DNA from: Saccoglossus kowalevskii
Taxonomy: Eukaryota; Hemichordata; Enteropneusta; Harrimaniidae
NCBI RefSeq assembly: GCF_000003605.2
Contig: NW_003123903.1
Span: 244,420-279,225, forward strand
DNA length: 34,806 nucleotides
Direction of reading: 5' to 3'
The translations under genes were made by a program, and so were the position numbers. Shown here one piece after another: positions 21,411-34,782 of this stretch. The notes under the pieces were generated by a model. The model was not told where the DNA came from, did no database searches, and saw only the letters and a list, made by a program, of their open reading frames with translations. The stretch's first letter is position 1. Every line of letters begins with the position of its first letter.

Positions 21411-24400
21411 CTGTGAATTAAAATAAATAAATATGAAATTATTGTTGTTATTACATTATAACCCATCTGGCACTGAAAACAATAGAATGTAGCATTCCAC
21501 AAAACAATTGAATGTAGAATTTCATAAAACAATGAAATGTAGTATTCCATAAAAAAAATAGAATGTATCATTCCTTAAAATAATAGAATGTAGCATCCCA
21601 TAAAACAATGGAATGTAGTATTCCACAAAACTGTGGCAGTGTGATATCATCAGTAAATGTGGCAGTGTGATATCATCAGTATTTGTGTAGGGGTGTCATC
21701 AGTAAATGTGGCAGAGTGACATCATCAGTATTTGTGTAGGGATGTAATCAGTAAATGTGGCAGAGTGACATCATCAGTATTTGTGTAGGGATATCATCAG
21801 TAAATGTGGCAGTGTGATATCAGTATTTGTGTAGGGATGTCATCAGTAAATGTAGCAGTGTGATATCATCAGTATTTGTGTAGGGATGTCATCAGTAAAT
21901 GTGGCAGTGTGATATCAGTATTTGTGTAGGGGTGTCATCAGTAAATGTGGCAGAGTGACATCATCAGTATTTGTGTAGGGATGTCATCAGTAAATGTGGC
22001 AGTGTGACATCATCAGTATTTGTGTAGGGATATCATCAGTATTTGTGTAGGGATATCATCAGTATTTATGTAGGGATGTCATCAGTATTTATGTAGGGAT
22101 GTCATCAGTAAATGTGGCAGTGTGATATCATCAGTATTTGTATAGAGATGTCGTCAGTAAATGTGGCAGTGTGATATCATCAGTATTTATGTAGGGATGT
22201 CATCAGTAAATGTGGCAGAGTGACATCATCAGTATTTGTGTAGGGATGTCATCAGTAAATGTGGCAGTGTGATATCATCAGTATTTGTGTAGGGATGTCA
22301 TCAGTACGGTATTTATGTTGGGATGTCATCAGTAAATGTGGCAGTGTGATATCATCAGTATTTATGTAAGGATGTCATCAGTAAATGTGGCAGAGTGACA
22401 TCATCAGTATTTATGTAGGGATGTCATCAGTATTTATGTAGGGATGTCATCAGTAAATGTGGCAGTGTGATATCATCAGTATTTATGTAGGGATGTCATC
22501 AGTAAATGTGGCAGAGTGACATCATCAGTATTTGTGTAGGGATGTCATCAGTAAATGTGGCAGTGTGATATCATCAGTATTTATGTAAGGATGTCATCAG
22601 TAAATGTGGCAGAGTGACATCAGTATTTGTGTAGGGATGTCATCAGTAAATGTGGCAGTGTGATATCATCAGTATTTATGTAGGGATGTCATCAGTAAAT
22701 GTGGCAGTGTGATATCATCAGTATTTATGTAGGGATGTCATCAGTAAATGTGGCAGAGTGACATCATCAGTATTTGTGTAGGGATGTCATCAGTAAATGT
22801 GGCAATGTGATATCATCAGTATTTGTGTAGGGATGTAATCAGTAAATGTGGCAGTGTGATATCATCAGTATTTGTGTAGGGATGCCATCAGTATATGTGG
22901 CAGTGTGACATCAGTATTTGTGTAGGGATATCATCAGTATTTGTGTAGGGATGTCATCAGTAAATGTGGCAGTGTGATATCATCAGTATTTGTGTAGGGA
23001 TGTCATCAGTAAATGTGGCAGTGTGATATCATCAGTATTTGTGTAGGGATGTCATCAGTAAATGTGGCAATGTGATATCATCAGTATTTGTGTAGGAATG
23101 TCATCAGTAATTGTGGCAATGTGATGTCATCAGTATTTGTGTTGGGATGTCATCAGTAATTGTGGCAGTGTGATATCATCAGTATTTGTGTTGGGATGCC
23201 ATCAGTAATTGTGGCAATGTGATGTCATCAGTATTTGTGTAGGAATCTCATCTATAAATGTGGCCATGTGATTTGTGCAGTCAGTAATGTTGGGAAAATT
23301 CAGAATATGAAAAGAAAGTTAAAAAGTGTTTTCTTAGGTAAACAACAAAAGATATTTTACACACCTCTGGTGGAGGGCTCTTTGGTCTTGTTAATGAGTC
23401 ATGACCTCTCCTGGATAACTTAGGGAGTCTATTATTGGGCCTCCTAGGTGGTATTATAGGTGAAATGGCCGACTTCACTGGATCAATAAAAACAAGTACT
23501 TTTGAAAATGGCCTACTAGCCATATTTTCCATTTCAACTGCACGCCTTCTGCGATCACGGCGACTGTCAAAAAACAGTTTAACTTTCCAAATAATGACGC
23601 AGAGTGCAAGGAAAAGGAAGAAACAAGAAAAGAAAACAGAGAAAAAAACAAACAAGTCAATGTGTGGCTGATCTTGTCGGAAAGTTAGGATTCCATGAGT
23701 CTCATTTTGACTGAATTCCTCCTTGCTGAGTAACACAATGTAGAATTTACGAGTCTCCAGCTCGTGTGGAACATGTGGAAATGTAACCACTAATCTATTC
23801 CTCAAACTATACACAATAAGAAACGTAAACGGGTTGTGGATCGTCACAAATGTATTCAACCCATCAGCGTAGATTTCAAGTAAGTCATTCACAATGCTTT
23901 GCTGTGTGGGTGGAGCGGTGATTGCATCCGTGGTTTGTGTCTCCCTAGCATAACGATGGTCTTCATCACGTCGACGACGACTGTGTTCCCAATATTGTTT
24001 ATCATCAATGTTTATAATATGTCTTCCATTGTTGGGGTCGGGAGTTACAACCCACGTGTCTTCCGAATAAGATAAATAGACATCAAGTGCACCAACAGTC
24101 ACGTCAATAAGAAGACGTATATCAACATTTGTGTACTTCGGTTGGATAGCAAAGAAAACACTCTTGCCTCCTGGAAGAGGCTTAGGGGGTGTTGCTGTAT
24201 CACACTCTGAAATAAAAAACACAACATTATATAACATGTATGAAGTGGCTCATAAAGTGGCTCTGTCACCTGCACAAGACAGACTTGATTACATTTCATT
24301 TGGATGATTTCTGCTTCAAGTGTCAAGGCGCACCAAGCAACAAGATGCAGGTAATTAGTAATGGTCTCGGCATTCTGATTGGTCAGTCAAGTTTTCATTT

Positions 24401-27400
24401 TTTGTTCTATTTCCCTTGGTTACCTGACATCAGCGCTTACACTCGTGTTTGTTCTATATATAAAGCAGGGTTTTCCTTTTACTTTCGTGAATATAAAACT
24501 GTTTCTTTTGTTACACAAATAGGGAGAAATTATACCAGAACCATCTCAAATAGGTCTAAGATGGCAGAGTGAATTGGCATATGGCTTTATTGCAGTATTA
24601 CACAAACCTTTACACAGAACGGAACTTGGAATGTTTTCAAATTACATCACTTAGTCACGTGCCTTTGGACCGGAATCCCGGTCCAGTGGAACAATATGGC
24701 GATTACTAGTTACCTGCGTCCTACTTGCCGTTTGCAAAGGACGCCGGGAACCAGCAAAAATATTTCATCTGAATATTGAAGACTAAAACCTACGTCACCT
24801 GCAGAGGGCAGACTAGATCATATTTCAACCAACTGCATAGTTTAGTTTATCAGTTGACACACATAAATACCTGATTGAGTTGTTGCAAAGCAATATACAT
24901 TGTTATACTGCATTTGTCGATAACACTGATGACTATTGGTGGGTTCCCCAATATAAAGTTCTTTACACGAGGCACATTGTCTTTTCCAGCAAGGTTCATT
25001 ATTGTCTCCTGTGCACACAGTCTCTGTGTGATTGTCACATTGGCATTCTAGTCCTGTTTCTTTATCACACCAGTCCCAGTGACCATTACACTCACACCTA
25101 CAATTTGGTTTTAAAATAAATATGTAACAGTATATCTGAGATATGGATAGGACATTTTGAAAAAGTGACATGCAATTTTAGCGAATTGTGGTAAAATGAT
25201 GTAATAGCGAAATGTTGATTTAGCGAATCTCTTTTGTCATTGTTGATTTCCTGTTTTCACAATTCTTGTCTGTCGCCTGCCAAAACAAATGCGTAGTTAT
25301 CACCTCCATAAAAACAAAGAAAAACTGTCAAGTGTAACTAGGAAGCACCCCAGATTTTTATGCTCCGGATTACTGTACACAAATCCCCAAGCATTTGCCA
25401 TTTTGAATTTAGAATGAAGTCATTAGCGACATCTCGAATTAGCGAATCAGTTCTGACATGTTTTACAGTTACTGTAGTTCATTACTGGCAAACAGAAAGC
25501 TGACTGAAGTATGTGTGGGGATCAAAATCGGTACTCTGCACCACCGGAATGCGCCAGCGCAATTCCAAAAATGAGCATTGTGTGTCCCCCCTAGTTGCAC
25601 CATCATTCTGGGTTCAAGCTTTTAAAAATGAAATCATAGAAAATGTTGATGAAGTTTTGATGTCCCTACAAATGTTATATAATAGTATTTCATGTGAAAA
25701 TAACATCCCTATTGCGCTGATTAACAGGCTTGAATATCATTGTCCTAACTTCATTTTGAACACAGATTAGGGCACAGTATGAATTGTCTTGATGGCGCAG
25801 AATGAGGGGGGCACAATGATGGCACAATGCTCATTTTGTGAAATGCGTCAGCGCATTCCAATGGCGCAGAGTAACGATTTTCGAGCCTCACAATACCTCG
25901 CTGACTCTTTAGAGAATACTGTATCGCCTGTATATTTGCTATGGAGGACAATAATTGTTCACACAAAACACCACTGATGTAAATTTTGATAATTGGAGAC
26001 ACAAATTTTGATAATTGGAGACACAAATTTTGATAATTGGAGACACAAATTTTGATAATTGGAGACACAAATTTTGATATTTGAAGACACAAATTTTGAT
26101 AATTGGAGACACAAATTTTGATAATTGGAGACACAAATTTTGATAATTAGAGACACAAATTTTGATAATTGGAGACACAAATTTTGATATTTGAAGACAC
26201 AAATTTTGATATTTGGAGACACAAATTTTGATAATTGGAGACACAAATTTTGATAATTGGAGACACAAATTTTGATATTTGGAGACACAAATTTTGATAA
26301 TTGGAGACACAAATTTTGATAATTGGAGACACAAATTTTGATATTTGGAGACACAAATTTTGATATTTGGAGACACGAATTTTGATAATTGGAGACACAA
26401 ATTTTGATATTTGGAGACACGAATTTTGATAATTGGAGACACAAATTTTGATATTTGGAGACACGAATTTTGATAATTGGAGACACAAATTTTGATATTT
26501 GAAGACACAAATTTTGATAATTGGAGACACAAATTTTGATAATTGGAGACACAAATTTTGATATTTGGAGACACAAATTTTGATATTTGGAGATTGGAGA
26601 CACAAATTTTGATAATTGGAGACACAAATTTTGATAATTGGAGACACAAATTTTGATAATTGGAGACACAAGTTCATCATCAAGTTGGTACTCACGGAAT
26701 ACACTGTCCATCCATCTTAAAGAATCCATCAATACACGTTTCACACTGATCTCCTTCGCTGTTATTTTCACATCCAATACATATTGCATTACTTATAGCT
26801 CCAGATGAAACAAATTCATTGGCCTAGAGAATTAATAACACATGTATTACATTATGTAATTATTATCCCCAGATACAACAACAGCATAAGGTCATGATTA
26901 TGTTAATGGAACATGCTATCAATATTTGATCCAGGTCATATCTGATATTATTATACATATATATTATATGTAATTTTGCAGTATTTTACGAGGCATTTTC
27001 ATTCTACCATATAAAGAAATGTAAATTTCAATTATGGAATGATTACGTGCGTAAACTTCCTCTAATAATAAAAACAAACATGGCTGCTACCAGGGTTTGA
27101 CCTGACTCCACACAAAGAAGTTCGCTGATTCTGTTCTAAACTTTTTGGATTTCGGCATTCCCATGATGTATCTTTGGAAGGAAAAGATGTATAATAATAA
27201 GGTTATTGTGAGGATACCTCAAAGTATGCACTCAGACAGTACACCGTTGCATCAACCTCTGCTGCACGTTGGTCGATACTCTCGCTGTACTGTCTTTGTG
27301 CATAAGTTTTGAGGTATCCTCGTAATAACCTCATATTATTATACATCTAGAGGCAAAAATAAAAACAAACCTACTTTATTTTGAAAAAGTGCATTAGTGA

Positions 27401-30400
27401 AATAGTGGCATTCAAACACCATTCTTTGCTTACATTGGACAATACAGAAAGTGGAAATAGGGAAATAGAATCCTGTGACTAAAATCAAATAACTGTGAAG
27501 ACAAAAATCTCCTAAAACATTTGCATTTCAGGTTGCACTAAATTATGACTAAAAGCAATAAGAATGTTTAATAATAAAGAATACCGCAAAGTATTCTCTC
27601 AGGCAGTAAGAGATCACATCAACCTCCATTACATGTCAGCCAACACAAACAATGTACTGCCTGCCTTTGTGCATATTATTATAACATAATGTTAACCTGA
27701 GTCATGTTGGATTTATTTGATTTTCATCATGCTAATATTATATGACCTGGGTCATGCAGACATCTATTGACTTGGATCATATACTGCTATTTTGATCTGG
27801 GTGTGCAAGTCTCAAAATACTCACCTGTGATTGCGTAATCTTAGATTCTTGCAGCATGTTATATTTTTGCATTGTTAGATTGTAGTCTGTTATACTCATA
27901 CAAATATCGGAGTTACCATTACAGTATGCTCTGCACGGCTGACATGTGCCGTTATTTTCGGGATTACCAACATAAAACGGAAGACATTCCTCACAATGAT
28001 CACCCTAAAAATTAAATAGATAAACATGTGTTAATTCACATACCTAACCTGTGTGTTGTTGTAACAATGTATACATTCATGTAACTAACCTGTGTGTTGT
28101 TGTAACAATGTATACATTCATGTAACTAATCTGTGTGTTGTTGTAACAATGTATACATTTATGTAACTAACCTGTGTATTGTTGTAACAATGTATACATT
28201 CATGTAACTAACCGTGTTGTAACAATGTATACATTCATGTAACTAACCTGTGTGTTGTTGTAACAATGTATACATTCATGTAACTAACCTGTGTGTTGTT
28301 GTAACAATGTATACATTCATGTAACTAACCTGTGTGTTGTTGTAACAATGTATACATTCATGTAACTAACCTGTGTGTTGTTGTAACAATGTATACATTC
28401 ATGTAACTAACATGCGTGTTGTTGTAACAATGTATACATTTATGTAACTAACCTGCGTGTTGTTGTAACAATGTATACATTTATGTAACTAACCTGTGTG
28501 TTGTAACAATGTATACATTCATGTAACTAACCTGTGTGTTGTTGTAACAATGTATACATTTATGTAACTAACCTGTGTGTTGTTGTAACAATGTATACAT
28601 TCATGTAACTAACCTGTGTGTTGTTGTAACAATGTATACATTCATGTAACTAACCTGTGTGTTGTTGTAACAATGTATACATTCATGTAACTAACCTGTG
28701 TGTTGTTGTAACAATGTATACATTTATGTCTGGATTCAATACTTTCACAGTTGGAATGTCCATTACATTCACACTCAATGGAACAATTGCCTCCGACATA
28801 TCCAAAGTAGCAATCACAGACATTAGGTTGAACACACTGTCCATTGAAGCAACCTTGAGTACAGACTGGCTTACACACACCTGAAGACCTATTAATGAAT
28901 GCACATTCATTACTTGACATATAATCAACAGACTCTCTCAAGATTATATCATGACATCGGAATTGCAACTCCTACCAGATTCTGTCGTAAATTCGCCCAT
29001 CCAAATAATCATGCTGGGCAGTTTCACAGCTGGTGGGCCCTTATTTGGGGATCAAAATTTAAAAATATTATCATCAAATATTGGGGGGGGGCTTATATTT
29101 TCATTGAAAAATCCACCTACGCCAGCAGTTGGACCACCCAAAACAAAAGAAACTACTGCAGAAGCTAATCTAAAATTTGTAGAATCTTGCTGTAGAAATG
29201 AATATTCGCCATGTTTTGATCTGGACGGGGTTCTTTGACCTGACAGGTAAAATTAACCAATGAAAATGATGGATGATGCCAACGTGTTCAAACTACCATA
29301 GCTCATTTAAATATGTTAATGTTATTGAACATAGCACGGAAGATATTTGCCAATGTTGTTGTACAATCCTTTGGCATGGATTTTGATGGGAAAACGACAT
29401 GATTTGTTTTTAAATGGTTTCCTTCCACAGGTCACCATCCAATTACTAACCTGTCTCTCTCATATCCTTCTTTACAGTCACATTGATATGATTCTAATGT
29501 ATCATTACATTTCTCAGTCTGTGCGCAGTTATGATGACCATTACGACATTCATTCTCTGGTGGACATCCTCCGAACGACCAAACAGGAGGACCATTTAGA
29601 TCAAGGGTATAGTTTGCAATTTCAGCTGAATGAAAAAAAAATACAACAACTAATAAAACCTGAAAATTGAATTGCCAAACACAATATATGAAGTACACAT
29701 CTGGTTTTACAACAAGCAGCCTCTCGGCTGAGATAGCTCCGCTGTTAGCAATGCACATTTCAATTAAAGAACAGAAGATATCATTAGAAAATGAACAATA
29801 TGCATAGTATCAATGCAATGGGACTTGCTGTTTTCAACAAGAATTCAAAAATATCATTTTTCACCATAAATGATTGTGGTTTTTAACAAGAAGAAAATAT
29901 CACTTTTTACCAAAAATGACAAAAATATTCACCAAAATTAGAGAATTGAAGATATCATCATGAAATGAACAAATTTGAGAGTGGTCCACATGTAGTACCT
30001 ATATATGTAATATCAAAGCAATTGGACTTGCGGTTTTTAACAAGAAGTTGAAAATATCACTTTTTACCAAAAATGACAAAAATATTCACCAAAATTAGAA
30101 AATTGAAGATATCATCATGAAATGAACAAATTTGAGAGTGGTCCACATGTAGTACCTATATATGTAATATCAAAGCAATTGGACTTGTGGTTTTTAACAA
30201 GAAGTCAAAAATATCACTTTTTACCAAAAATGACAAAAATATTCACCAAAATTAGAGAATTAAAGATATCATCATGAAATGAACAAATTTGAGAGTGGTC
30301 CACATGTAGTACCTATATATGTAATATCAAAGCAATTGGACTTGTGGTTTTTAACAAGAAGTTGAAAATATCACTTTTTACCAAAAATGACAAAAATATT

Positions 30401-33400
30401 CACCAAAATTAATAGAGAATTGAAGATATCATCATGAAATGAACAAATTTGAGAGTGGTCCACATGTAGTACCTATATATGTAATATCAAAGCAATTGGA
30501 CTTGCGGTTTTTAACAAGAAGTTGAAAATATCACTTTTTACCAAAAATGACAAAAATATTCACCAAAATTAGAGAATTGAAGATATCATTACAAAATGAA
30601 CAAATCTGAGAGAGGTCCACATGTAGTACCTATATATGTAATATCAAAGCAATTGGACTTGCGGTTTTTAACAAGAAGTCGAAAATATCACTTTTTACCA
30701 AAAATGACAAAAATATTCACCAAAATTAGAGAATTGAAGATATGATCATGAAATGAACAAATCTGAGAGAGGTCTACCCAAGGTACATATACACCAAGTA
30801 TCAAAGCATTCAGGCTTGTAGTTTTCAAGAAGAAGTCGAAAAAGTAAAACATTGTCACGGACGCCGGACGCCGACGGACAATCACTCATATGATAAGCTC
30901 CGCTCGACAAAGTCGACAGCAGAGCTAAAAAGTGAGATCGTCTTAAGGTAGAAGTCTACTCATAAACTAAAAAAACCCAGAATTTATTCATTTTGCAATA
31001 AATTGTACTCCAAGGCAATCTAAGTATATTGACGTAAAAAAAGTTGGGAGTCACCAGCCTTATTTTCGAGAAATTGATGGTTGTATTTTAGTGGAAAGTC
31101 GCCATTTTGACACTATTATAACACTTTTACCACAGGTTCCTATGGCAGAGATATTATGCAATATCTCAAAATCTTGACTGGTGACATAGGCTGAAAAAAT
31201 TATATATTGTTAATAATGGAGTGTCTTTTGTTGTTCTGAATTATTAAAAAAATCTGGGTTTTAAAAAGTGTCAAAAAATGCAATTTTTCTTTAACATTAT
31301 GTTTTATGGAATTGTTTTAAAAATAGCAATTTTTAAGAAATATTGGAACACGTTTCTCAAAAAGTATAACTGTAACACACAAAATAATGCTATTTCATTG
31401 TACCATGGGACATTAGCTTCATGATTGTACATAATAAACTAATGAACATTGTTATGTGATTTATGACCAATTTTGTCAAAAATTATGACTAGGCTTCTAC
31501 CTTCCATCCCCCCAATACCCCCTACAGCTTACCTGGCAGTGGATCAACCCTTAGTGAGACATTCTGTGCTGTACAGACACCACCTTCAGCTGGCCCATGT
31601 ATGCCTCCAGCCATACATACACCAACACCATTTTCACCGGCAAAAGAACACCAACCACATCCTGGTTGATTTAAGCATGTAGAACACATTGTGTTTAAAC
31701 TGCATGGTGTAGGACATCCATCTACTGTGTATCGAACCACATGTTCACATATACCATTGACACATTGTAACTGTATATAGGTTGGTGACATGCACTGTAA
31801 AACAAACATTGTACAGTCAATACAGTCAATACAGTGATAGTTGATTGCTTATTTTTTTTCAATATTATTACCTACATATATCAATAGTTTTTTTGTAATT
31901 GTATTTTTTTTTGTTTTTTTTAAACCATTGTTGTGCTTTAGATAGTAATCTAATTAATAATAAACTAACTAAACAACACAAGTAGATAATAGACCATTTT
32001 CCGTTCACTCTGAGATCCCACATTATACATGAAATCAAACACAGAACACAAAAAAGAAGCAGCCTGTCGGCTGAGATTGCTCCGCTGTTAGCAATGCACA
32101 TTTCAATTAAAGAACTAAAGATATCATTAGAAAATGAACAATATGTATAGTATCAAAGCAATTGGACTTGCTGTATTCAACAAGAAAAATATTCATCAAA
32201 ATTGGAGAATTGAAGATATCATCACAAAATGAACAAATCTGAGAGAGGTCTACCTTAGGTACCTATATGTATAACATAAAAGCAATCAGACTTACAGTTT
32301 TTATTAATGAGAAGTCGAAATCACTTTATACCAAAAATGACAAATATATTCATTTAAATTAGATAATTAAAGATATCATCACGAAATGAACAAATCTGAA
32401 AGAGGACCACATGTAGTACCTATATATGTAATATCAAATCTAAGGTACATATACACCAAGTATCAAAGCAATAAGAATTGTAGTTTTCAAGAAGAAGACG
32501 AAATAGTAAAAAGTTGACACGGATGACGACGGACGACACCGGACAATCACTCATATGATAAGCTCCACGACAAAGTCAACAGTGGAGCTAAAAAAGTCAC
32601 ATGGAAATTGACAGTGCTTAATATATGCTATACACATTTCAAGATGTTAAATTTCGATAAAGTAAGGGTATCCCTGAATGATCTGTATTTTGACATTTAA
32701 AAATTATTTGATGTAACAACGGTAAATGCCATATTACTGACCTGCTGTAAGCCTTCACTCCAGACACATTCCTGCCAACCTCCGTCAGCTCCTTTAGAAC
32801 TTAGACACTTATAACAGGTAGAGTGTTCATGGCATAATACTGGACATTGTGATGGTGGTACTGAGTCAATATCAAAAGATGAGAGATCTCTTAAAGTACT
32901 ACTAAAACAACTCCAGTCATAGATTGGATATTCGTGGGCTGTGCTTCGGGTTTCACCTATCAACAACACAATAAAGAAATAAGGCAATTATTAAATATAG
33001 TAAAAAACAAACCAATGGCTGCGGCATTCATGGCTATTCAGTAACAGTGATATCTTCAGAATCATTCAAAAGTTATTAACTAATCATGAAGAGGCTTACA
33101 CAATAAACCACCAATCAAATCTCACCTTCTTTCTTTATCTGTCTAGTCCACATACATGCAGATATTGAGATGCATTTATTACAGTCTGATGCCTCACATA
33201 TCAACTCAGGACAACTTTCAATGTTTTTTAATGCTTGTTGGTCTTTATCACAGTTGTGTTCTATTTGACATGATAAGTCTTTGTCAATACATCTACCAAC
33301 AGGACAGCTGTAACACCACTGACATTGCTGCAATAAGACACAATGATAAGTCATGTAACTGACAATGGCATGTCACTGTAGATGATCACGCAAACACTAC

Positions 33401-34782
33401 ATGTGCACGCAGATTAAAATTATCTTATACAAATAATGTTACATACATTGTACATGTATATGATGTATGGAAACCACTTTGAGAGCATTCTAATGACTGC
33501 GGCTATCTAAAGGATACTGCAAAGTATCCTACTCAGGCAGTAAGAGAAAACATTGATTTCCACAACATTTTGTCAATATACTGCAATTTTGAAAGGTTTA
33601 GAAGACTCAAATTTTTACTGAAGACAGTGTTCTTTATAGAACACTGTTTATTCAAGAAAAATCTGGGAAATGCTTACAAGATCTGCATCTGGATATACTG
33701 GATATGGAGACAGACATTCACTACATGTTGATAACATTTCACATTCACGGTTCTCTATGGTTTCTCTGTTGCAATAAACTCCAGCAATTTCATCTTCACA
33801 ACTGAAACAAATATATAAAGAACACTTTGAATATAATATTGTGCAGTCAAGTGTAATTTATGTACTTGTCACTGTCCAGAATATGTCACATGGAAGGAAA
33901 ACACATTTTTAGTTCATTTTTCAAAATTTTGACAAAAACAAAGAATATATGGTGCACACATTTTTAACCTATTTGTGCAATGACCAGAAACATGAATATT
34001 TCTATTCTTGACTTAAGCTCTCAACTGTACTCAACTTTTTTTGTCTAATTGGTGTGTTGAATTGAAAGCACACCAGTAGCAGCCATCTTGAATTGGTTGC
34101 TATGCACAATACTGTCAATGGCATTATATTTTATATCTTGTATTTTATATTATTTATGTAATAAATCAAATTTTTCCTGCCATGAAATTTAAAATTTTCA
34201 TTGACTAACAAAAGTCATTTATCTCATGCAAAAGTTTTTCAGAGTAAATTTTGAGTAATTCATGAACTATTATGATTTTTTTTAATTTTATTTCATTTTA
34301 TCATCTTACACACTCTTTCTTTAAGTACTGCCCTCTAGTGATGCAATGTGAAAATGAAGCACATGGATATAGTCAATGTCAGTCAAATCAACAACTGTAT
34401 GTGGTTTATAATATCTCTTAAAGAAATGATACTTTGTTGAATTGCTCTATACCATAAGTTCAATGCTGTGAAAGGCCTTTCTTTCATCCATTTACATCAC
34501 TAGAGGGCGCTACTTGTGGTACCTAAACTTACCTTGGAGGTTGGCTGAGAGCATTTGAAAAACAAGCTGTTGTATTAGAACTCACACATGCTGAACATCC
34601 ATGAGATTGTAAACAGCCAATCGTAGTAGAGTGCAGAGTGCAAAGGTCATCAGGTAAAGTTAATTGGACCAGAGTACCATGGGTAATCCCATTAAATCCA
34701 CCCATGATGTAAATATCATTGCCAATGGCAACAGCTGCTGAGGAAACTGTTGGCTTCATGGGTTCACCAATAACTTTTATAT
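21174..34782 (-). CDS. MEGF8: MEGF8 orthologue, 3' part of gene (12 exons)
   Basis: Single-pass membrane protein. In vertebrates MEGF8 acts with the E3 ligase MGRN1 and with MOSMO to lower surface Smoothened and so dampen Hedgehog signalling. Exons in transcript order: 34782-34533, 33801-33678, 33327-33126, 32956-32742, 31794-31533, 29625-29451, 28888-28696, 28004-27825, 26823-26696, 25097-24871, 24206-23365, 21410-21174. Every junction is AG/GT and all phases match, giving 1,010 residues after a 2-nt split codon. Residues 1-45 end a Kelch repeat; 47-350 hold PSI-type cysteine clusters; 371-409 and 414-447 are EGF-like; 448-496 and 577-634 are laminin-EGF; 653-832 form the stalk; 833-858 is the membrane helix; MASRPF is at 880-885; the tail ends at 1010. 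The block EPTDDG...LPGG...GCLGSSLV in the tail identifies MEGF8 rather than attractin, which shares only MASRPF. The N-terminal CUB and first Kelch block lie outside the window. Exon calls were made by eye. Confidence 0.93.
21478..21631. repeat. 25-bp tandem repeat with internal dyad GAATG-TAG-CATTC
   Basis: Six copies at a 24-25 bp spacing (GAATGTAG at 21485, 21510, 21534, 21561, 21586, 21611). Several units contain the small palindrome GAATGTAGCATTC or GGAATGTAGTATTCC, separated by A-rich stretches. The array directly abuts the 49-bp minisatellite and lies about 70 bp from the acceptor of the terminal MEGF8 exon. Confidence 0.85.
21632..23275. repeat. 49-bp minisatellite filling the last MEGF8 intron
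   Basis: About 33 copies of a 49-bp unit made of two half units, one with CATCAGTATTTGTGTAGGGA and one with CATCAGTAAATGTGGCAG. Some copies have lost or gained a half unit. Most contain GATGTCATCAG and GATATCATCAG or GACATCATCAG. The array occupies most of the intron between exons k and l, starting about 90 nt after the donor. Confidence 0.95.
23365..24206 (-). CDS. MEGF8: MEGF8 exon k: stalk, transmembrane helix and proximal cytoplasmic tail
   Basis: 842 nt, the largest exon here. Acceptor TTTATTTCAG; the split codon G|AG gives ECDTATPPKPLPGG. The extracellular stalk contains VFFAIQPKYTNVDIRLLIDV, as in other MEGF8 proteins, and a polybasic RRRRDEDH run (residues 728-735). LTFRQDQPHIDLFVFFSV leads into the membrane helix (about 833-858), followed by basic residues (stop-transfer) and MASRPFSKV. 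The open frame continues to a stop at 23281, but a donor GTGTGT at 23364 after PPPE joins in phase 0 to exon l, which carries the conserved MEGF8 tail, so the read-through end is unlikely to be the main product. Confidence 0.93.
24871..25097 (-). CDS. MEGF8: MEGF8 exon j: last laminin-EGF module
   Basis: 227 nt. It completes the proline codon of exon i (CC|G), then CECNGHWDWCDKETGLECQC, DNHTETVCTGDN, CASCKELYIGEP and HQCYRQM. This order (NGH, NHTETV, CASC, QCYR) is diagnostic of the final laminin-EGF module of MEGF8. Donor GTATTT at 24870 is a weaker match to consensus. Confidence 0.92.
25546..25859. mobile_element. Foldback element family 4 in the intron after exon i
   Basis: The left arm begins GGAATGCGCCAGCGCAATTC and continues to AATGAGCATTGTG; the right arm reverse-complemented begins GGAATGCGCTGACGCATTTC and continues to AATGAGCATTGTG. 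Arms are about 60 bp with small indels, separated by about 190 bp. An 85-codon plus-strand frame spanning the left arm and centre is probably chance. Confidence 0.65.
25978..26670 (-). repeat. 22-bp minisatellite in the intron after exon i
   Basis: About 31 copies of a 22-bp unit (plus strand: ACACAAATTTTGATAATTGG plus AG), with a variant GATATTTGG/GATATTTGAAG interspersed and one truncated unit near 26590. In transcript sense it starts about 25 nt after the donor at 26695. Three units (66 bp) restore frame, and all three minus-strand frames stay open, giving overlapping open frames of roughly 185-276 codons that repeat KFVSPIIKICVSNYQNLCLQ. These are treated as artefacts of the repeat, not genes. 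Confidence 0.95.
26696..26823 (-). CDS. MEGF8: MEGF8 exon i: laminin-EGF half module
   Basis: 128 nt. After ATTCTCTAG it reads ANEFVSSGAISNAICIGC, then ENNSEGDQCETCIDGFF and GQCIP, the back half of a laminin-EGF module. Donor GTGAGT at 26695. In the MEGF8 frame, retention of the following intron gives an immediate TGA. A 22-bp minisatellite begins about 25 bp inside that intron. Confidence 0.9.
27190..27345. mobile_element. Foldback element family 3, copy 1
   Basis: Arms of about 52 bp: the left arm contains GGTTATTGTGAGGATACCTC and the right arm, reverse-complemented, GGTTATTACGAGGATACCTC. They flank a roughly 43-bp loop and run out to ATAATAATA on both sides. It lies in the intron between exons h and i. 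Related pieces are at 27565..27675 and 33511..33590. Confidence 0.7.
27565..27675. mobile_element. Foldback element family 3, copy 2 (diverged)
   Basis: Shares GCAAAGTATTCTCTCAGGCA on the left and TGTACTGCCTGCCTTTGTGC with ATATTATTATA on the right with the copy at 27190..27345. The arms still pair in part around AGGCAGTA / TACTGCCT. It lies in the same intron. Confidence 0.55.
27825..28004 (-). CDS. MEGF8: MEGF8 exon h: laminin-EGF module
   Basis: 180 nt, phase 0 at both ends. It starts GDHCEECLPFYVGNPEN after CTTTTTAG-type acceptor sequence and closes the laminin-EGF fold at CQPC. It then encodes the MEGF8-specific stretch CRAYCNGNSDICMS and a polar linker to QESKITQSQ. Donor GTGAGT at 27824. 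Confidence 0.93.
28042..28728 (-). repeat. 41-bp minisatellite made of an exon 3' end plus its splice donor
   Basis: Seventeen copies of a 41-bp unit, a few shortened or mutated. The rightmost copy overlaps the last 33 nt of MEGF8 exon g. In transcript sense each unit holds TACAACAACACACAG followed by GTTAGTTACATGAATG, that is, the exon end and donor. Most copies keep CAG|GTTAGT. The copy whose donor lies near 28130 has lost the GT (reads ATTAGT), and the ones near 28212 and 28411 are altered just before it. Since 41 is not a multiple of 3, use of the next donor would shift the frame, and a TGA appears within the second unit. Confidence 0.95.
28696..28888 (-). CDS. MEGF8: MEGF8 exon g: EGF module and start of laminin-EGF module
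   Basis: 193 nt, entered at TTCATTAATAG|G. It encodes RSSGVCKPVCTQGCFNGQC, CDCYFGYVGGNC, then the laminin-EGF start CECNGHSNC and CIHCYNNTQ. The protein motif continues perfectly into the next exon as GDHCEECLPFYVGNP, so the donor at 28695/28694 (CACACAG|GTTAGT) is the functional one. The last 33 nt of this exon are the exonic copy of the 41-bp tandem array described separately, so near-identical donor sites recur many times downstream. Confidence 0.92.
29451..29625 (-). CDS. MEGF8: MEGF8 exon f: EGF-like (calcium-binding type) module
   Basis: 175 nt. It completes the split alanine codon from exon e and reads AEIANYTLDLNGP, then ECRNGHHNCAQTEKCNDT and YQCDCKEGYERD, a calcium-binding-type EGF module (about residues 376-409). 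Donor GTTAGT at 29450; the split arginine is finished by the next exon. Confidence 0.91.
29714..30930. mobile_element. Inverted-repeat element family 1, long copy with internal 157-bp array
   Basis: It starts AGCAGCCTCTCGGCTGAGA and TAGCTCCGCTGTTAGC, and ends ATAAGCTCCGCTCGAC, then CAGAGCTAAAA. The ends are partly inverted (TAGCTCYGCTGT against ACAGCAGAGCTA). Inside, a 157-bp unit containing ATTGGACTTG and GGTTTTTAACAAGAAG recurs at 30021, 30178, 30335, 30495, 30652 and, degenerate, 30808. There is no coding capacity, so it is probably a non-autonomous DNA element. It starts 89 bp from the acceptor of MEGF8 exon f. Confidence 0.75.
30945..31503. mobile_element. Inverted-repeat element family 2 (559 bp)
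   Basis: Ends are AAGGTAGAAGTCTACTCATA on the left and, reverse-complemented, AAGGTAGAAGCCTAGTCATA on the right: 18 of 20 positions match. The interior is AT-rich and non-coding. No clear target duplication is visible. It begins 15 bp after family 1 and ends 29 bp from the donor of MEGF8 exon e. Confidence 0.75.
31533..31794 (-). CDS. MEGF8: MEGF8 exon e: PSI repeat with GCGWC core
   Basis: 262 nt, phase 0 at entry after TTTTACAG and one base over at exit (GTAAGC donor at 31532). It reads CMSPTYIQLQCVNGICEH, then CPTPCSLNTMCSTC and QPGCGWCSFAGENGVGVC, the classic PSI core. The donor lies only 29 bp from the end of an inserted inverted-repeat element (30945..31503). Confidence 0.92.
32058..32595. 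mobile_element. Inverted-repeat element family 1, short copy
   Basis: Same start (AGCAGCCTGTCGGCTGAGA, TTGCTCCGCTGTTAGC) and same end (CAATCACTCATATGATAAGC, then GTGGAGCTAAAA) as the copy at 29714..30930, in the same orientation, but about half the length, with only one or two diverged internal units. It lies in the intron between exons d and e. The two shared termini define the family boundaries better than either copy alone. Confidence 0.75.
32742..32956 (-). CDS. MEGF8: MEGF8 exon d: PSI repeat
   Basis: 215 nt. The glycine codon is split with exon c (G|GT). It encodes GETRSTAHEYPIYDW, then CPVLCHEHSTCYKCLSS and a QECVWSEG end, a PSI-type repeat with the usual tryptophan-containing tail. 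Donor GTCAGT at 32741. Confidence 0.9.
33126..33327 (-). CDS. MEGF8: MEGF8 exon c: PSI repeat
   Basis: Starts QCQWCYSCPVGRC after a TTATTGCAG acceptor, phase 0, and ends at a GTGAG donor (33125), 202 nt long. It carries a C..C.KC.S...C.W pattern (ICEASDCNKCISISACMW), typical of the PSI repeats in MEGF8 and attractins, which space the propeller and EGF domains outside the cell. Confidence 0.9.
33511..33590. mobile_element. Foldback element family 3, fragment
   Basis: Contains AGGATACTGCAAAGTATCCT and ACTCAGGCAGTAAGAGA, followed by a right end around ATATACTGCA. It matches the left part of the other two copies, with a weak or missing right arm. It lies in the intron between exons b and c. Confidence 0.5.
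33678..33801 (-). CDS. MEGF8: MEGF8 exon b: cysteine-rich PSI/linker segment
   Basis: The 124-nt exon completes the serine codon split with the previous exon (AG|T), then reads SCEDEIAG with six more cysteines, ending at a GTAAG donor (33677). It lacks a methionine near its start. It continues the PSI-like region. The frame is confirmed by exact phase continuity on both sides. Confidence 0.87.
34323..34516. mobile_element. Foldback element with CCCTCTAGTGATG ends
   Basis: The left end is AGTACTGCCCTCTAGTGATG and the right end reverse-complemented is AGTAGCGCCCTCTAGTGATG, with arms of about 27 bp. The interior is AT-rich and non-coding. The right end is 16 bp from the donor of MEGF8 exon a. 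Confidence 0.6.
34533..34782 (-). CDS. MEGF8: MEGF8 exon a: end of Kelch repeat and start of PSI cluster
   Basis: Entered through an acceptor after a pyrimidine-rich tract (34783-34806) and left through a GTAAGT donor at 34532. The exon is 250 nt: a 2-nt split codon, 82 codons and 2 nt over. It shows the Kelch signature IYIMGGFNG, followed by LPDDLC and the first cysteines of a PSI-like cluster (C47, C56, C62, C65, C73). It is the most upstream exon in the window; the gene continues beyond the right edge. Confidence 0.9.

What the first reader, a model, noticed from the sequence alone, without database searches (positions are those of the whole stretch)
28042..28728. Minisatellite seeded on an exon-intron junction multiplies a functional 5' splice site
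The 41-bp unit contains the last codons of MEGF8 exon g (laminin-EGF residues CYNNTQ) joined to its donor. Seventeen copies run into the intron, and most keep CAG|GTTAGT. Only the first donor keeps the reading frame and the conserved CYNNTQ-GDHCEEC join; the next adds 41 nt and shifts frame, and later ones add a stop. The cell must either choose the exon-proximal site among near-identical neighbours or produce length-variable transcripts sensitive to decay. Some distal copies have lost the GT or altered exon-like bases, perhaps by drift. Copy number could vary between individuals and tune MEGF8 output. That last point is inference.
Basis: partly seen in the sequence, partly recalled or inferred. 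Interest (0 to 1): 0.85.

Follow-up and report, generated by a model that had tools for sequence, protein, structure and literature searches.

The report
Repeat array copying a splice donor
In an animal MEGF8 gene the last bases of one exon and its splice donor are copied seventeen times into the next intron; only the first copy can make the normal protein, and the same genome shows the same pattern at a few other genes.

Summary
On the minus strand, 17 copies of a 41-bp unit run from the last 34 nt of a MEGF8 exon (28888-28696) through nearly all of its 691-nt intron. 13 of 17 copies keep CAG|GTTAGT exactly; 16 of 17 keep GT. MEGF8 identity is firm: 11 exons join into one open frame, and PDB MEGF8 matches at E=3.5e-80. 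Only the exon-proximal donor gives an open frame: donor 2 meets a stop in exon h; donors 3-17 and full retention meet one TGA in the array.

Most likely this is a neutral minisatellite seeded by a short duplication across the junction, tolerated because the authentic donor stays exon-proximal. It belongs to a printed kind: the IFI6 minisatellite (Turri 1995) and tandem repeats at exon-intron boundaries (De Grassi and Ciccarelli 2009).

New here: of 12 arrays with repeated donor-like motifs that I inspected (20 contigs listed), four begin at an apparent coding exon end: MEGF8, an alpha-2/delta-like gene, a C-type lectin and, less surely, a FASTK-like gene. This shows recurrence, not enrichment. 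No RNA or population data were available, so donor use and copy-number tuning are untested.

The parts
28044..28729 (-). 41-bp minisatellite, 17 copies, running from the last 34 nt of exon g into the intron
28696..28888 (-). MEGF8 exon g (193 nt), ends ...KCIHCYNNTQ; its last 34 nt are the first repeat copy
   Evidence: Pfam PF24973 E=2.8e-15 across the g-h join
28690..28698 (-). Donor 1, CAG|GTTAGT: the only donor of the 17 that leaves an open frame into exons h and i
28005..28695 (-). Intron g-h, 691 nt, nearly all of it array; an intron from the last donor would be 44 nt
28043..28657 (-). Donors 2-17: 12 of 16 exact CAG|GTTAGT, 15 of 16 keep GT; each one gives a premature stop
27825..28004 (-). 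MEGF8 exon h (180 nt), begins GDHCEEC; acceptor TTTTTAG|GG
23365..34782 (-). Span of 11 MEGF8 exons (a-k, called by eye) that join into one open frame of 932 aa
   Evidence: PDB 9qty MEGF8 E=3.5e-80

Best explanation
A short tandem duplication took in the last 34 nt of MEGF8 exon g plus about 7 nt of intron (GTTAGTT). It then expanded by slippage or unequal exchange to 17 copies inside the intron. Splicing still uses the first, exon-proximal donor, which leaves the protein unchanged. The distal donors are passive copies: any use of them, or retention of the intron, gives an mRNA with a stop in the array or in exon h, which should be destroyed by nonsense-mediated decay. Shown: the array, its register on the junction, the gene identity, and the frame fate of each of the 17 donors. 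Inferred: the mutational route, the dominance of donor 1 (exon definition of a 193-nt exon, and donor 1 being transcribed first), and decay of the rest.
For: Array and copies. Eleven exons including g-h joined at donor 1 read through without a stop and match MEGF8. The Laminin/attractin EGF profile spans the join, and two domains elsewhere in the genome without an intron there have the same spacing, so the exon end is old coding sequence and the array derives from it. 34 of 2798 exon bases of the window lie in arrays, and these are the end of exon g. Array GT is kept no better than other columns here, as in the C-type lectin array (18 of 21; 36 of 48 pairs kept more often) and the FASTK-like array (26 of 30; 29 of 50). 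The window is minisatellite-rich: 4826 of 34806 bases. Junction-seeded arrays occur at other genes of this genome (weaker 59, 61).
Against: No transcript evidence that donor 1 is used. The donors share 34 nt upstream and 7 nt downstream, so nothing local marks donor 1. By an approximate, recalled weight matrix GTTAGT is a middling donor (8.6 against 12.7 for the consensus), which could allow leakage. In the alpha-2/delta-like array GT is among the best kept column pairs (53 of 54 copies; 4 of 39 pairs kept more often), which neutrality alone does not predict, though that array was found through its donor motif.
Confidence: 0.77

Rival explanations
1. A regulator: the extra donors compete with donor 1, a fraction of transcripts goes to nonsense-mediated decay, and the copy number sets MEGF8 output (a poison-donor rheostat).
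For: 15 of 16 extra donors keep GT and 12 of 16 are identical to donor 1; each leads to a premature stop.
Against: No RNA or copy-number data; no sign that donors are kept better than the rest of the unit in this array.
Confidence: 0.1
2. Intron gain: the intron itself arose by tandem duplication of an exonic AGGT segment, with one copy giving the donor and the last copy the acceptor.
For: Copies carry CAG|GTTAGT; tandem duplication of AGGT segments is a printed route of intron gain (passages of PMC3443670).
Against: The acceptor is not in a repeat copy. The 39-nt tail before exon h is not related to the unit: local score 8 against a shuffle mean of 8.9, 1596 of 2000 shuffles as good; in register 3 against 5.5, 1973 of 2000 as good. 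The unit contains GTTAGTT, which exon h does not (by inspection).
Confidence: 0.05
3. The true exon end lies elsewhere, or splicing uses a distal site, and the repeats are incidental.
For: Identical donors make choice ambiguous; the last copy carries an overlapping TAG|GTATGT of similar score (8.06 against 8.64).
Against: Only donor 1 keeps the frame and the conserved join; donors 16 and 17 leave introns of only 85 and 44 nt.
Confidence: 0.04
4. Assembly artefact: the copies are collapsed or expanded by the assembler.
For: Arrays of near-identical units are hard to assemble; copies 9-12 are identical.
Against: Copies 4, 6, 7, 8, 13, 14, 15 and 17 carry variants or length changes; no gap nearby. 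The exact copy number may still be wrong.
Confidence: 0.04

Closest known systems
IFI6 (6-16) minisatellite with multiple splice donor sites (Turri, Cuin and Porter 1995; seen only as cited in PMC4526556, PMC3618361 and PMC2915984)
   Same: A minisatellite whose units carry splice donor sequences used with an exon.
   Different: In IFI6 two downstream repeat units are reported as used, giving three mRNA species (passage of PMC4526556); here use of downstream copies is untested and would give a premature stop. The unit here is 41 bp and holds 34 nt of conserved coding sequence. The original paper was not held.
Internal tandem repeats at exon-intron boundaries of human duplicated genes (De Grassi and Ciccarelli 2009, PMC2812944; outline and passages seen)
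   Same: Minisatellite units at exon-intron boundaries; 27 intron modifications reported.
   Different: Those vary between recent paralogs and can create new introns; here one gene, found at one locus, with an apparently pre-existing intron.
Human introns from tandem arrays (Zhuo et al. 2007, seen only in reference lists) and intron gain by tandem genomic duplication (PMC3443670, passages)
   Same: Tandem copies that carry AG|GT splice-like sites.
   Different: Here the acceptor is not in a repeat copy.

Membership tests
Minisatellite | Head-to-tail units of about 10-100 bp, several copies | tested here: met
   41-bp unit, 17 copies, 94% matches
Minisatellite | Copy number varies between individuals | not testable with these tools
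   One assembly; exons g and h found at one locus
Donor minisatellite of the IFI6 type | Repeat lies at an exon end and its units carry donor sites | tested here: met
   13 of 17 copies CAG|GTTAGT; first copy is the exon end
Donor minisatellite of the IFI6 type | More than one donor is used in mRNA | not testable with these tools
   No transcript data
Intron gained by tandem genomic duplication | Acceptor lies in a repeat copy; intron is made of duplicated exon | tested here: not met
   Tail unrelated to unit
MEGF8 | Sequence match to MEGF8 over the C-terminal part of the window's conceptual protein | tested here: met
   PDB 9qty MEGF8, E=3.5e-80, residues 577-897 of 932
MEGF8 | Laminin/attractin-type EGF domains | tested here: met
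   PF24973 E=4.3e-16, 2 stretches

The most novel reading that the evidence does not exclude
In this animal genome exon-intron junctions repeatedly become seeds of minisatellites that multiply the 5' splice site, so that a number of genes carry long trains of near-identical donors. These form a natural class in which copy number sets the share of transcripts sent to decay, and they are a natural test of the rules by which the spliceosome picks among identical donors.
Probability: 0.15. Interest if true: 0.68.

Novelty: new member of a known kind. Interest (0 to 1): 0.42.

Why it matters
Choice among competing 5' splice sites has mostly been studied with engineered duplications (recalled). Here are natural trains of about 17 to 54 near-identical donors with shared local context, so that chiefly position (distance to the upstream and to the downstream acceptor) differs. 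If transcripts show one donor used, positional rules alone suffice; if many, array length is a dosage variable in a developmental gene (MEGF8's role is recalled). That several genes of one genome share the pattern makes a genome-wide count worth doing.

Tried and rejected
Intron tail as a diverged 18th copy, which would have pointed to intron gain: rejected (the last part of that script, a control on the other introns, crashed and was not rerun). Selection on the extra donors: no excess or deficit of GT in the MEGF8 array. RNA structure of the array: the unit contains the palindrome AATGTATACATT, and copies can pair, but a 321-nt stretch folds no better than shuffles (z 0.80, 76 of 100 shuffles as good). 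Second allele in the assembly: none among four protein matches. A DNA search for the 41-bp unit elsewhere did not complete, so its dispersal is untested apart from the pattern search, where only C1644 among the places listed carries it (the forward listing was cut). A GTGAGT census was swamped by a 65-bp satellite on C92. The window's species was not identified. Literature: searches were listings; of the papers named I saw an outline and passages (PMC2812944) or passages only (PMC4526556, PMC3618361, PMC2915984, PMC2586383, PMC3443670). Searches for MEGF8 with splice donor and tandem repeat and for minisatellite splice donor sites in invertebrates found 0 papers in the held library.

Full report
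What is there. On the minus strand of the window, 28044-28729 is a 41-bp tandem repeat of 17 copies (TRF score 1239, 94% matches). Read in gene direction the unit is ATGTATACATTGTTACAACAACACACAG|GTTAGTTACATGA. Copy 6 is 38 bp, copy 13 is 35 bp, and copy 17 leaves the repeat after GTTAG; 9 of 17 are identical to the consensus. The first copy is the end of a coding exon: 34 of the 2798 exon bases called in the window lie in arrays, and these are the end of exon g.

The gene. Eleven exons called by eye, with AG/GT boundaries, join into one reading frame of 932 aa without a stop, while the other two frames hold 34 and 113. The conceptual protein matches MEGF8 chains in the PDB (9qty, E=3.5e-80, residues 577-897) and carries Laminin/attractin EGF domains. 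The exon g-h join lies inside such a domain (PF24973, E=2.8e-15). Two other loci of the genome encode the domain uninterrupted at that point, with the same spacing: CQHNTIGAHCEEC and CTDNTTGDKCELC against CYNNTQ|GDHCEEC. So the exon end is old coding sequence and the array was seeded from it, not the exon from the array.

Donors. 13 of 17 copies keep CAG|GTTAGT; copies 8, 13, 15 and 17 are changed and only copy 15 has lost GT. Donor 1 gives a 691-nt intron and an open frame. Donor 2 (+41) ends at a stop in exon h. Donors 3-17 and full retention end at one TGA within the array, also where the added length is a multiple of three. So none of the 16 extra donors makes an open extended frame. CAG|GTTAGT is also the donor of exon f, so it is an ordinary donor for this gene. 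The weight matrix used is recalled and approximate.

How it works. The simplest account is a neutral minisatellite seeded by a duplication across the junction. It is compatible with the gene's function because the authentic donor remains next to the exon and everything else is intron. In this array the GT of the donors is kept as well as other parts of the unit, neither better nor worse (16 of 17; 18 of 40 pairs kept more often). The idea that the intron itself was made by the duplication fails: the 39-nt tail before the acceptor is not a repeat copy. RNA folding gives no support for a special structure.

Is it alone? I searched the whole genome (572 Mb, 4830 contigs) for three donor-like motifs at minisatellite spacing. 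By my own estimate from base frequencies (no call) chance gives almost none, so matches are arrays. The tool's control, the pattern read backwards, gives fewer matches in three of the five searches and more in two: 201 against 1280, 160 against 950, 1614 against 1185, 184 against 433, 1583 against 734. The donor-like counts that I could see are ruled by a few large satellites, so they show no general excess of donor-like arrays. Listings were cut at about 100 places, so no total can be given.

Of the 20 contigs with arrays that were listed I looked at sequence next to 12. Four arrays begin at an apparent coding exon end. C1644 is MEGF8. On C2604 (40 bp, 54 copies) the exon peptide IACDNKGAWFSL aligns with MACENKGYYYEI of the calcium channel alpha-2/delta-1 subunit (E=1.4e-4 for the joined pieces; the Pfam VWA match, 21.2 bits, is under its cut-off of 23.8). 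On C777 (49 bp, about 20 copies) a C-type lectin exon ends FWIGLNDLE|GTAAGT (Lectin_C E=1.7e-7). On C224 (51 bp, about 30 copies) the exon is only weakly identified (FAST_1 E=0.0043, 17.4 bits against a cut-off of 27.4, in the open frame before it; no credible family match in the exon itself), and most of its copies lack the G before GT (37% keep it), so this array multiplies a good donor only in part.

Six show no evident coding exon at the array start, judged by eye from reading frames of about 250-300 nt, so that a short exon could be missed: C642, C991, C998 and C2225, C128 and C850. Two are undetermined: C808, where N adjoin the array, and C1113, where the fetched piece is array throughout. 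Not looked at: C92, C1089, C1331, C1550, C1685, C1954, C2086, and C2872 (which carries the same unit as C991). The set is conditioned on the search motif, which favours arrays seeded at donors, so it shows recurrence, not enrichment.

What is known. Minisatellites that supply multiple splice donors are in print for IFI6 (Turri 1995, seen as cited), and tandem repeats at exon-intron boundaries were counted in human duplicated genes. This case is a new member of that kind, notable for 17 copies, for the conserved coding sequence within the unit, and for company in the same genome.

Limits. No transcript, no second individual, no related species and no species name were available. Use of the extra donors and any effect on MEGF8 amount are untested.

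Noticed in passing
L059-L060 (G000:C2604:73973-76150, minus): A 40-bp array of about 54 copies begins at the end of an alpha-2/delta-like exon and repeats its CAG|GTTAGT donor; GT kept in 53 of 54 copies.
   Followed up: partly
L065, L068 (G000:C777:23221-24232, minus): A 49-bp array of about 20 copies begins at the end of a C-type lectin exon (FWIGLNDLE) and repeats its GTAAGT donor; GT kept in 18 of 21 copies.
   Followed up: partly
L064, L067 (G000:C224:33602-35146, minus): A 51-bp array (17 codons) begins at the end of an apparent exon of a FASTK-like gene; long stretches of it stay open in frame.
   Followed up: partly
window 25981-26671: A 22-bp array of 31 copies starts 25 nt downstream of the end of MEGF8 exon i, without including its donor.
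   Followed up: no
window 27000-27350: A dispersed repeat of about 340 bp; dozens of places across the genome match it, the best-scored at 87-92% identity.
   Followed up: no
window 28044-28729: Each copy contains the 12-bp palindrome AATGTATACATT, which might favour slippage; RNA folding is not better than shuffles.
   Followed up: partly
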